The notes under the pieces were generated by a model. That model was not told the origin of the DNA, did not search any database, and was given only the letters and a program-made list of their open reading frames with translations. Below are positions 15,101-18,100 of a stretch of 64,000 bases of DNA, piece after piece. Every line of letters starts with the position of its first letter. Positions within the stretch are counted from its first letter, which is position 1. The position numbers and the translations under genes were made by a program. Source of the stretch: Owenia fusiformis (Eukaryota; Annelida; Polychaeta; Sabellida; Oweniidae); contig CAIIXF020000003.1 in NCBI GenBank assembly GCA_903813345.2, forward strand, positions 27,419,248-27,483,247, in the 5' to 3' direction.

Positions 15101-18100
15101 GTTCAGTATTCCGCAGTTGGTGTTCCTTTGGTTAGTGTTCGGCATTCAATAATTGGTGTTCAATGTCTGTAACAAATGGCAGGTGGTGATATTTTGCATG
15201 TTAATGCCTTGTTGTTGACTTGCAAAACTTGCTGCTATTTGAAGGCTGCAGAGCGTAGGAAGGAGAAAGAAGCAGAAGAAAGAAGAAAATATCCACTAGA
15301 GCTGAGAATTAAAGAACATATCATTGGCCAGGAGAACGCTATACTCACTGTCTGTTCAGGTTAGCAGTAAAATATAAATTATTCTCCAATTTCTCTAAAA
15401 GCTGGGATGGACTAGGGTGTATCTTTAAAAGTATCAAAACACTGAATATCCCACTTTATACAAATAATATTGTTTTGAGAAATCTTTTGTAAAAATTAGC
15501 AAAGAAATGAGGTAAATAGATATTGATTTGAGAAATCTTTTGTAAAAATTAGCAAAGAAATGAGGTAAGAAGAAATTGTTTTAGAATGTAGATCTAAAAC
15601 TTCATTTTGCTTGAGATAAATGTAGATTTAACCTTTGTTTCATTTTAGCTATCAGACGTAAGGAGAATGGTTGGTACGATGAAGAACATCCCCTTGTGTT
15701 TCTGTTCCTTGGCTCCTCTGGTATTGGAAAGACAGAGCTTGCGAAACAAGTGGCCAGATACCTACATAAGGATGACAAAAAGGTTTGGGTCATTTAGGAT
15801 CTTTTGACTGCTTAACTCACATATCATACTGTATTGTCTAGATTTGACAAAATATTAGACATTCACGTACAAGTTATATTAAAAATGTGTAACTTAACCT
15901 CCCCGGAGTATATCCCAAGATCCTTCAATGAGTAGGAAAACCTACTAACTTATTATCAATAGGGAGAAGTAAACCTTTTCTTATTTTAGGGCCATAAATT
16001 CACTCTTCAAATGTGTATAATTCATTGTGATATAAGTGTTAATGTTTGAGGTGTCATCATAGATTCAAATGTCAACCTATAACACAGGCATTTTTTGGGT
16101 TTCATGATAGATTTCATTTCAGGGCTTTATCCGTATGGACATGTCAGAGTTCCAAGAAAGGCATGAAGTTGCTAAATTCATAGGTTCACCACCAGGCTAT
16201 GTTGGTCATGAAGAAGGTGGTCAGCTGACTACTAAGTTGAAGAAGAAACCAAATGCTGTTGTTCTGTTTGATGAGGTTGACAAAGCTCACCCTGATGTAC
16301 TGACTATTATGCTGCAATTGTTTGATGAGGTGAGTTGTATTGTTTGATGAGGTTGAAAAAGCACACCCTGATGTACTGACTTTTATGCTGCAATTGTTTG
16401 ATGAGGTGAGATAATTTGTTTGATGAGATGAGTTGTATTGTTTGATGAGGCGAGCTGTATTGTTTGATGAGGTGAATTGTTCTATTTGATGAGGTTGACA
16501 AAGCTCATCCTGATGTACTCACTATTATGCTGCAATTGTTTGATGAGGTGAGTTGTATTGTTTGATGAGGTGAGTTATATTGTTTGATGAGGTGAGTTGT
16601 ATTGTTTGATGAGGTGAATGATATTACTTGATGAGGTCAATTATATCGTTTGATGAGGTGATTTGTATTGTTTGATGAGGTGAGTTATATTGTTTGATGA
16701 GGTGAGTTGTATTGTTTGCTGAGGTGAGTTATATTGTTTCATGAGGTGAGTTGTAATTGTTTGATGAGGTGAGTTGTACTGTTTGATGAGGTGAATGATA
16801 TTGCTTGATGAGGTGAATTATATCGTTTGATGAGGTAAGTTATATTGTTTGATGAGATGAGTTATTGTTAGATGAGGTAAATTGTTCTGTTTGATCAGGT
16901 TGACAAAGCTCACCCTGATGTACTGACTAATATACTGTAATTGTTTGATGAGGTGAGTTCTATTGTTTGCTGAGGTGAGTTGTATTGTTTGATGAGGTGA
17001 GTTGTAATTGTTTGATTAGGTGAGTTGTATAATTTAATAAGGTAAGCTGTATTGATTGATGAGGTTGATGAAGCATATCCTAATATACTGACTAATATGC
17101 TGCAGCTTGTTCATGAAGTGAGTGACCATCCCTCCCAAAAATTCCTCTAGTTTAGACATCTCTAAAATAGCCATTGACTGTACATTTTTCTTCAGTGAAA
17201 ACCTTTTGAGTATCTTCAGCTACATGTAGGTTAAAAATAATACATATTCAACCTTTTTATTATTATTAGCTACATAGCATATCTGTCAGACATTGCTGTG
17301 GTAACTGTGATACTGTTTCACCGTTTTTAATTTCACAGAAATAATGTTAAACAGAAACAGCAAAAAATTAGCCCAGTGAATACTTCCACTTGCATATATA
17401 GTATTGATAATGTTTCCAAGAATAAAATACCCCAGCATGGCATTTGCAATATGTTTTGGATATTTATGTTTTTGTTTTCCATTATTACAGGGCAGACTGA
17501 CAGATGGAAAAGGCAAGACAATAGAGTGTAAAGATGCTATATTTATGATGACCTCAAATCTTTACAGGGCAGACTGACAGATGGAAAAGGCAAGACCATA
17601 GAGTGTAAAGATGCTATATTTATAATGACCTCAAATCTTTACAGGGCAGACTGACAGATGGAAAAGGCAAGACCATAGAGTGTAAAGATGCTATATTTAT
17701 AATGACCTCAAATCTTGCCAGTGATGAGATCGCCCAACATGGATTACAGCTGAGAAAAGAAGCTGATGAGATAAGACTAAACAGAGCTGTTGAAAGTAAA
17801 GGTTTGTTTTAATGTTTAATGAACAATGTTTGAAAAAAGTGTCATCAGTGCAGTGAGCTGTGGCTAGATGGATATCTACTTTCTTTTCTTGTTTGTATGG
17901 TTTCAAGGGGAAAAAATCGTACCCTGTAATCGGCAAAATTTGAATGGAGGATTTATTACAAATCTACTCCCCCTCCATTCATTTTTTCCAATAGCAGGGT
18001 GTTAAAATGAATGAATTTTGAACAGTTGCAAGAAAAATGGAAACCCAAGACCGCTCATTAAATTGAGTCTATGTTTTATTTTATATTACAGAGGATGAAA

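What the first reader, a model, noticed from the sequence alone, without database searches (positions are those of the whole stretch)
16330..17120. Array of decoy 5' splice sites grown from a CLPB exon edge
The intron after the Walker-B exon is made of about 22-bp units that fuse the exon's last bases (TTTGATGAG) to its own donor (GTGAGT). Over a dozen units keep a consensus-like donor, and four retain decayed upstream coding bases. The exon holds GTTTGATGAGGT twice, so unequal pairing could have seeded the array. If U1 binds these units, donor choice in an essential ATPase exon would be crowded, with possible intron retention or cryptic exons.
Basis: partly seen in the sequence, partly recalled or inferred. 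Interest (0 to 1): 0.8.

Follow-up and report, generated by a model that had tools for sequence, protein, structure and literature searches.

The report
Minisatellite grown from exon splice junction
In an animal's CLPB gene, the last bases of an exon plus its splice signal have been copied over and over into the next intron, leaving many strong look-alike splice sites of which only the outermost can make the protein; the same genome holds more such arrays, on both sides of exons, so this looks like a recurrent and probably neutral kind of repeat that offers a natural test of how splice sites are chosen.

Summary
Positions 16330-17123 of a CLPB intron are a diverged tandem array with 30 copies of the exon tail anchor TTTGATGAG. 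Of these, 22 are followed by GTRA and 14 by GTRAGT; 11 decoys equal the authentic donor in U1 pairing energy. Four long copies keep decayed exon sequence. Only the first donor is productive: reading on meets TGA at 16345-16347.

It is not unique. Surveys of the same genome found arrays whose outermost unit appears to be an authentic junction at 6 of 11 GGTGAGT loci, 11 of 15 AGGTAAGT loci and 7 of 16 acceptor (TTTGCAGG) loci, against 1 of 9 backward-motif controls. In ten preset 10-kb samples, 2 of 15 arrays sit on junctions (homeobox donor, BICC1-like acceptor). Some exon calls have homology support; others rest on open frames.

Best explanation: ordinary minisatellite birth by tandem duplication that happens to span an exon edge, tolerated because extra copies fall on the intron side. 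Use of the decoys is untested. Closest precedent: the human 6-16/IFI6 splice-donor minisatellite.

The parts
16123..16329 (+). CLPB exon with Walker B motif ([24 protein letters not shown]|), 207 nt; holds GTTTGATGAG twice (16266-16275 and 16320-16329), 54 bp apart
   Evidence: phmmer of the joined exons to human CLPB structures, E 1e-94; frame
16330..16338 (+). authentic donor GTGAGTTGT, the only one that keeps the reading frame open
   Evidence: any extension meets TGA at 16345-16347 (VSCIV*)
16330..17123 (+). donor-side array: 22-bp units (9-13 nt of exon tail and 13-9 nt of intron head; the ATTG at the join fits either) with four 54-bp long steps; 22 GTRA and 14 GTRAGT decoy donors
16343..16405 (+). 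long copy 1 of the LFDE..LFDE exon segment
   Evidence: alignment
16485..16547 (+). long copy 2
   Evidence: alignment
16890..16952 (+). long copy 3
   Evidence: alignment
17055..17117 (+). long copy 4, the most diverged, with the last decoy donor at 17118
17485..17716 (+). acceptor-side array: three 77-bp copies of TTACAG|GGCAGACTG..AAATCT (copies 2 and 3 identical, copy 1 differs at 2 sites); acceptors at 17490|17491, 17567|17568, 17644|17645
   Evidence: the first two acceptors run into TGA (..SNLYRAD*), only the third continues ..[14 protein letters not shown]
17645..17801 (+). productive next CLPB exon
32268..32387 (+). exon of a small-GTPase-like gene (AIKALIGNKIDLE..CRASACTG|) whose donor is followed by an array
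   Evidence: an upstream exon 29571-29849, taken to be the same gene, matches Ras, Pfam 1e-9; this exon itself has no convincing Pfam hit
32340..32978 (+). second donor-edge array in the window: 33/98-bp units carrying the exon tail GCATCTGCTTGAACAG|GTATTG
43747..44549 (+). 26-bp array that starts in the last codons and stop (STCFC*, TGA 43772-43774) of an exon taken to end the same GTPase-like gene, and runs past the stop

Best explanation
The feature is a minisatellite born by tandem duplication of a segment that spans an exon-intron junction. In CLPB a 76-bp segment (about 16267-16342: 63 nt of exon and 13 nt of intron) was duplicated into the intron. Further unequal exchanges between the repeated TTTGATGAG anchors then multiplied the short 22-bp unit and left four long copies. 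The next exon's start and acceptor were independently triplicated more recently. Because each new copy lies on the intron side, the outermost copy (first donor, last acceptor) remains the functional junction and the protein is unchanged, so the arrays are tolerated and drift. Shown: the anatomy, the equal U1 pairing, the frame consequences, and that the same layout recurs at other genes of this genome on donor and acceptor sides. Inferred: neutrality, the unequal-exchange history, and that the spliceosome uses the outermost sites in vivo.
For: Unit and anchor structure, graded decay of long copies, near-identical 77-bp copies. All 8 genome matches to the CLPB fragment lie in this locus. Only the outermost sites are productive in CLPB. 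Recurrence, judged from open frames beside splice signals: 6 of 11 GGTGAGT loci, 11 of 15 distinct AGGTAAGT loci, 7 of 16 TTTGCAGG acceptor loci, 1 of 9 control loci, 2 of 15 arrays in preset random samples, 3 of 10 arrays in this window, the index array included. Homology places exons at the edge of a ferlin gene (PDB otoferlin 6e-20), NCS1 (2e-10), UDP-glucose dehydrogenase (1.5e-10) and Rieske (3.4e-8), KIAA0895L (1.9e-7), TSP1 (1.3e-15), homeodomain (1e-8) and myosin-Ib (2e-7). Weaker, below Pfam's curated cut-offs: kringle 2.3e-5, Ras 9e-4, sugar transporter 1.6e-4, BICC1 KH 3.4e-5, EGF 3e-4. Frames look unselected: 4 of 21 donor-edge arrays have an in-frame, stop-free GTRAGT decoy in the held sequence, about what chance gives (my estimate, one in six).
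Against: No RNA evidence that the first donor and last acceptor are the ones used. No second individual or species could be compared, so age, copy-number variation and neutrality are untested. Many exon-edge calls in the surveys rest on my reading of open frames. A simple codon score supports them only in part: at the exon ends themselves 12 of 22 score 0 or more, against 13% of non-coding stretches and 83% of the training exons; L027, L028 and L053 score clearly negative and L046 is too short to be open over 75 nt. Scored blindly at the first full-motif unit it was 7 of 25, controls 0 of 9. The donor motifs are not clearly enriched in tandem arrays (GGTGAGT 624 against 505, AGGTAAGT 217 against 358 matches for the backward controls), although the acceptor motif is (97 against 27).
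Confidence: 0.8

Rival explanations
1. The decoy donors are used at an appreciable rate and produce premature stops (nonsense-mediated decay) or retained introns, so array length tunes CLPB output, as a regulatory or deleterious load.
For: 11 decoys match the authentic donor in U1 energy. Passages of PMC5585400 report that SRSF1 can favour the intron-proximal of two competing donors and that DOK7's intron-proximal donor, which is also the stronger, is preferred; the U1-occupancy model behind a proximal preference is recalled. Every decoy lies intron-proximal and is poisonous here.
Against: No transcript data. Several unrelated genes carry such arrays, which suggests tolerance. Exon-bound enhancers and co-transcriptional order could favour the first site; the same paper reports opposite effects by position and by hnRNP A1.
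Confidence: 0.25
2. Exon-intron junctions are mutational hot spots for minisatellite birth in this genome (for example through R-loops, AGGT microhomology or splicing-coupled breaks).
For: 2 of 15 arrays in random samples and 2 of 9 other arrays in the window sit on junctions, against roughly 5% expected if duplications fall uniformly (my estimate from about 430,000 junctions x 60 bp in 498 Mb); one-sided chance about 0.03.
Against: Small numbers and a rough expectation. The motif surveys are biased by design: uniform duplication plus motif choice already predicts roughly 60% exon-edge for AGGTAAGT and 25% for GGTGAGT arrays (my estimate), near the observed 11 of 15 and 6 of 11. Acceptors are hit too, so nothing is donor-specific.
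Confidence: 0.15
3. The intron itself was gained by tandem duplication of an AGGT-bearing exon segment (Rogers-type intron gain) and the array is its remnant.
For: Units carry GAG|GT; tandem duplication across AGGT and across intron-exon borders is a documented route to new introns (PMC4974935, abstract and passages).
Against: Between the array and the first acceptor lie about 360 nt (17124-17484) in which TRF finds no repeat, and the acceptor side is a separate duplication. Whether the intron position is old could not be tested.
Confidence: 0.07
4. Assembly error or sequencing artefact.
For: Tandem arrays are prone to mis-assembly; exact copy number cannot be trusted from one assembly.
Against: Units differ from each other (72-83% matches), so they are not one read repeated. 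The same layout recurs at other loci, including two paralogous exons on C6 (L046, L054).
Confidence: 0.03

Closest known systems
Human 6-16 (IFI6, G1P3) splice-donor minisatellite (Turri, Cuin and Porter 1995)
   Same: A minisatellite at an exon's 3' edge whose repeat units carry splice donor sites.
   Different: In IFI6 two downstream repeat units serve as splice donors, giving three mRNA species (passage seen in PMC4526556; the 1995 paper itself was not read). Here use is untested and in CLPB every downstream donor gives a stop. Here the layout recurs at several genes and on acceptors too.
Intron gain or change by tandem genomic duplication (Rogers 1989; Hellsten 2011; potato RdRp, PMC4974935)
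   Same: Tandem duplication of a segment with splice signals, including segments that cross an intron-exon border; fission yeast genes with repeated 24-bp AGGT segments are cited there (abstract and passages; the older papers not read).
   Different: No new intron is shown. An existing intron is lengthened at its edge and the copies form a multi-unit array.
Decoy or pseudo 5' splice sites and decoy exons (recalled, not looked up)
   Same: Strong non-used donors near a real one that can bind U1.
   Different: As recalled, known decoys are single or few and their effect was measured; here there are over a dozen near-identical sites and no measurement.

Membership tests
Splice-donor minisatellite (6-16/IFI6 type) | tandem array of minisatellite units starting at an exon's 3' edge | tested here: met
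Splice-donor minisatellite (6-16/IFI6 type) | units keep splice-donor consensus | tested here: met
   11 decoys equal to the authentic donor in U1 energy; 14 of 30 copies GTRAGT
Splice-donor minisatellite (6-16/IFI6 type) | downstream unit donors are used in mature transcripts | not testable with these tools
   no RNA data; in CLPB such use would give a stop codon at 16345-16347
Intron gain by tandem duplication | the intron consists of duplicated exon sequence | tested here: not met
   about 360 nt (17124-17484) show no tandem repeat
Intron gain by tandem duplication | the intron is absent in relatives | not testable with these tools
   no related animal genome held
CLPB (mitochondrial AAA+ disaggregase) gene | encoded protein matches CLPB over the AAA domain with Walker A and B | tested here: met
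   AAA_2 4e-50, human CLPB structures 1e-94

The most novel reading that the evidence does not exclude
In this animal, splice junctions are a preferred birthplace of minisatellites, so that hundreds to thousands of introns (an extrapolation from small samples) carry arrays of consensus-strength donors or acceptors. Its spliceosome would have to follow a strict outermost-site rule (first donor, last acceptor), against the intron-proximal preference reported for some competing donors in mammals.
Probability: 0.15. Interest if true: 0.8.

Novelty: new variant of a known kind. Interest (0 to 1): 0.5.

Why it matters
How a spliceosome picks one donor among identical neighbours is usually studied with designed minigenes. 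Here one genome supplies many natural competitions, some with more than ten equal sites, on donors and acceptors, in and out of frame. RNA data from this animal could settle whether position (first donor, last acceptor) decides. The arrays also show how introns can lengthen from their edges without touching the protein, and they may mislead gene annotation.

Tried and rejected
Hot-spot reading: considered and downgraded, because motif-based surveys favour junctions by design and the unbiased sample is small.

Donor-motif enrichment in arrays: not clear from match counts.

Other copies of the CLPB array: the weaker hits that I read were an unrelated 7-aa coding repeat (L010), an unrelated 21-bp repeat (L011) and, by luck, the ferlin donor array (L015).

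Surveys, rows and drops: one search printed only its first rows (C1 to 19.35 Mb); these form 11 loci, all fetched; L023 and L026 are one dispersed element (so 10 distinct). Judged not exon-edge: L019, L023, L024, L025, L026. One search printed its first rows (to C7); these form 17 clusters, 16 fetched; the cluster at C6:14337766, 1.1 kb past L054's array, was not fetched; L046 and L054 are one family and counted once, giving 15. Judged not exon-edge: L039, L040, L042, L048. L044 is counted on decayed first units. One search printed 15 control loci, 9 fetched; left out were C1:19350486 (it is the donor array L028), C1:61721037 and four on C2. Controls were judged on the 5' side of the motif only, both strands; L036 was first read at a wrong place and read again correctly, with the same verdict. 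One search printed all 97 rows, 16 loci, all fetched; L062 and L068 are plausible but not counted; L058, L059, L064, L066, L067, L069, L070 judged not. In the random sample I judged 150-nt flanks, and four of the 15 arrays reach or nearly reach the end of a piece.

Organism: a COX1 search found nothing. 498.26 Mb with 12 contigs (C1-C12) holding 477.5 Mb resembles the annelid Owenia fusiformis (505.8 Mb, 12 chromosome-scale scaffolds; passage in PMC9977687); unproven.

Codon-score classifier: weak, kept as a caution.

Print search: (listings, and passages of a few papers) showed no genome-wide description of exon-edge minisatellites; that library holds only openly licensed papers.

Names recalled without a convincing hit: DIP2 (L051; no hit), GMC oxidoreductase (L061; none), CHD (L060; none), xanthine dehydrogenase (L063; MoCoBD_2 0.011), SLC22 (L029; Sugar_tr only). 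The ferlin and NCS1 peptides had no Pfam hit; their support is from PDB.

Full report
Checking the observation. The window lies in a 498-Mb animal genome (G000:C3:27419248-27483247). The gene is CLPB: the joined exons match human CLPB structures at 1e-94 and Pfam AAA_2 at 4e-50, and all 8 genome matches to that fragment fall in this locus. Exon 16123-16329 ends LFDE|GTGAGT. From there to 17123 the intron is a diverged tandem array (TRF rows with periods 22, 44, 66 and 76, 72-83% matches). I count 30 copies of the TTTGATGAG anchor inside the intron: 29 with up to 2 mismatches in the listing, plus GTTCATGAA at 17109-17117 with 3. Of these, 22 are followed by GTRA and 14 by GTRAGT. Four steps are 54 bp long and contain decayed copies of the LFDE..LFDE exon segment, the farthest being the most diverged. 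Against the 5' end of U1, 11 decoys have the authentic donor's duplex energy of -10.8 and four more are between -10.7 and -9.5; 200 shuffles of the array give 0.15 sites of -10.8 or better on average and 3 at most.

The intron's other end is duplicated too. TTACAG|GGCAGACTG..AAATCT, the acceptor and first 71 bases of the next exon, stands three times in a row (17485-17716). Copies 2 and 3 are identical and copy 1 differs at two sites. Reading on from either of the first two acceptors meets a stop (..SNLYRAD*). Only the third continues into ..[14 protein letters not shown]. On the donor side, reading past 16329 meets TGA at 16345-16347. So among these donors and acceptors only the longest intron, 16330-17644, yields CLPB.

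Recurrence in the same window. A small-GTPase-like gene (exon 29571-29849, Ras 1e-9) appears to include an exon 32268-32387 followed at once by 33/98-bp units that repeat its tail and donor (32340-32978). What looks like its last exon seeds a 26-bp array from its final codons and stop (43747-44549). That these exons form one gene is my inference. By one TRF filter the window has 10 arrays, of which 3 sit on splice junctions and 1 on a stop codon.

Recurrence in the genome. A DNA search with the CLPB array hit by chance a ferlin gene: exon ..NYKKNPNFLVPVKSFDV|, aligned to otoferlin at 6e-20, then 43-bp units with exon tail and donor (46.5 copies by TRF to the end of the held piece), next exon ELPENEIF.. 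downstream. I then surveyed arrays by three exact motif copies. GGTGAGT: 624 matches against 505 for the backward control; the printed part gave 11 loci, 6 with the first unit at the end of an apparent exon. AGGTAAGT: 217 against 358; 15 distinct loci examined, 11 exon-edge. Acceptor TTTGCAGG: 97 against 27; 16 loci in the genome, 7 exon-edge and 2 plausible. Backward control TGAGTGG: 9 of 15 printed loci examined, 1 exon-edge, and that one carries a GTAAGT donor beside a TSP1 exon.

How sure the exons are. Good homology: UDP-glucose dehydrogenase 1.5e-10 and Rieske 3.4e-8, NCS1, otoferlin, KIAA0895L, myosin-Ib, TSP1. Weaker and below Pfam's cut-offs: kringle, Ras, sugar transporter, EGF. The rest have an open frame beside a splice signal only. 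At the exon ends, 12 of 22 score 0 or more on a simple codon score, against 13% of non-coding and 83% of training stretches; three (L027, L028, L053) score clearly negative. Some of the survey calls may therefore be wrong.

Unbiased sample. To escape motif choice I took ten 10-kb pieces at preset positions. TRF with period at least 12 and at least 2.8 copies gave 15 arrays; 2 sit on splice junctions. One is a homeobox exon ending ..LAAMLGLTDAQ| (Pfam homeodomain 1e-8; PDB homeobox 2e-8) with a 28-bp array starting at its donor. The other is a BICC1-like KH exon (3.4e-5, below the cut-off) with three copies of acceptor plus exon start, the last being the real one, the same layout as CLPB's next exon.

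How it most likely works. A tandem duplication that spans an exon edge leaves one intact outermost junction and puts the rest inside the intron. The protein is unchanged if splicing keeps to the outermost site, so the duplication is tolerated, and repeated anchors then allow unequal exchange to lengthen the array. In CLPB the two LFDE codon runs supplied the anchor, which explains the 54- and 22-bp steps. Shown: anatomy, pairing energies, reading frames, recurrence on both edges. Inferred: tolerance, the exchange history, and use of the outermost sites. Frames look unselected: of 21 donor-edge arrays, 4 have at least one in-frame stop-free GTRAGT decoy in the held sequence and 17 do not, two of these having no GTRAGT decoy in the held piece; this is about what chance would give. 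One of the four (L021) is a 33-bp unit with 11 in-frame stop-free decoys, and L045 is open over two 42-bp units; these are the best places to look for protein variants made by donor choice.

Is there a hot spot? By my rough estimate uniform duplication puts about 5% of arrays on junctions, and about 60% of AGGTAAGT arrays and 25% of GGTGAGT arrays on donors, because donors are where these words are common. Observed: 2 of 15 at random and 2 of 9 others in the window, 11 of 15, 6 of 11. That is compatible with no hot spot, or with an excess of up to a few-fold. Acceptors are affected as well, so a donor-specific cause is not needed.

Comparison with what is known. The closest case is the human 6-16 (IFI6) minisatellite, whose downstream repeat units are said to serve as splice donors (Turri 1995, seen only as a citation and in a summarising passage of PMC4526556). 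Tandem duplication across splice signals is also a known route of intron gain (PMC4974935, abstract and passages). What differs here is array-scale, mostly frame-breaking copies inside an existing intron, on donors and acceptors, at several genes of one genome. My searches of openly licensed papers showed no such survey; that does not show that none exists.

Limits. No RNA, no second individual and no relative could be searched. Copy numbers come from one assembly.

Changes made on checking: the last anchor copy is corrected to GTTCATGAA; the C6 paralogues are two, not three; the control L036 was re-read; exon ends were re-scored; confidence in the best explanation is lowered slightly (0.82 to 0.80) because the codon score supports the survey exons only in part, and the intron-gain rival is raised from 0.06 to 0.07 because one argument against it was not tested.

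Noticed in passing
window 17485-17716: Acceptor and start of the next CLPB exon stand three times (77 bp); only the last acceptor keeps the frame.
   Followed up: yes
window 32340-32978: A second donor-edge array, at a small-GTPase-like exon, with 33/98-bp units.
   Followed up: partly
window 43747-44549: 26-bp array seeded from the last codons and stop codon (STCFC*) of what looks like the end of the same GTPase-like gene.
   Followed up: partly
window 46344-46793: 27-bp in-frame array (GDCDTKSMY) whose last unit ends in AAG|GTAAGT; may be a coding repeat at an exon end.
   Followed up: no
window 11739-13780: 63-bp x 32 array starting about 40 bp after an AATAAA downstream of an open frame that looks like a single-exon receptor gene.
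   Followed up: no
window 39106-42963 and 57614-62000: Long open frames that look like non-LTR retrotransposon proteins (judged by eye); one lies between exons taken to be of the GTPase-like gene.
   Followed up: no
L021 1401-1830: 33-bp donor-edge array open in frame (VSPNAHSFDTE repeated): donor choice could change protein repeat number.
   Followed up: partly
L015 1342-3341 and start of L018: Ferlin exon followed by a 43-bp donor-edge array (46.5 copies by TRF in L015).
   Followed up: yes
L046 and L054 (G000:C6 about 14.303 and 14.336 Mb): Two paralogous exons carry the same donor-edge array with differing units, so the array moved or persisted with duplication; a third stretch of units at 14337766 was not examined.
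   Followed up: partly
L061: Exon (recalled as GMC-oxidoreductase-like, no Pfam hit) with an acceptor-edge array on one side and another repeat shortly after its donor.
   Followed up: no
L010 1410-2423: 21-bp array that would code a 7-aa repeat next to a transmembrane-like segment on the minus strand; not splice-related.
   Followed up: no
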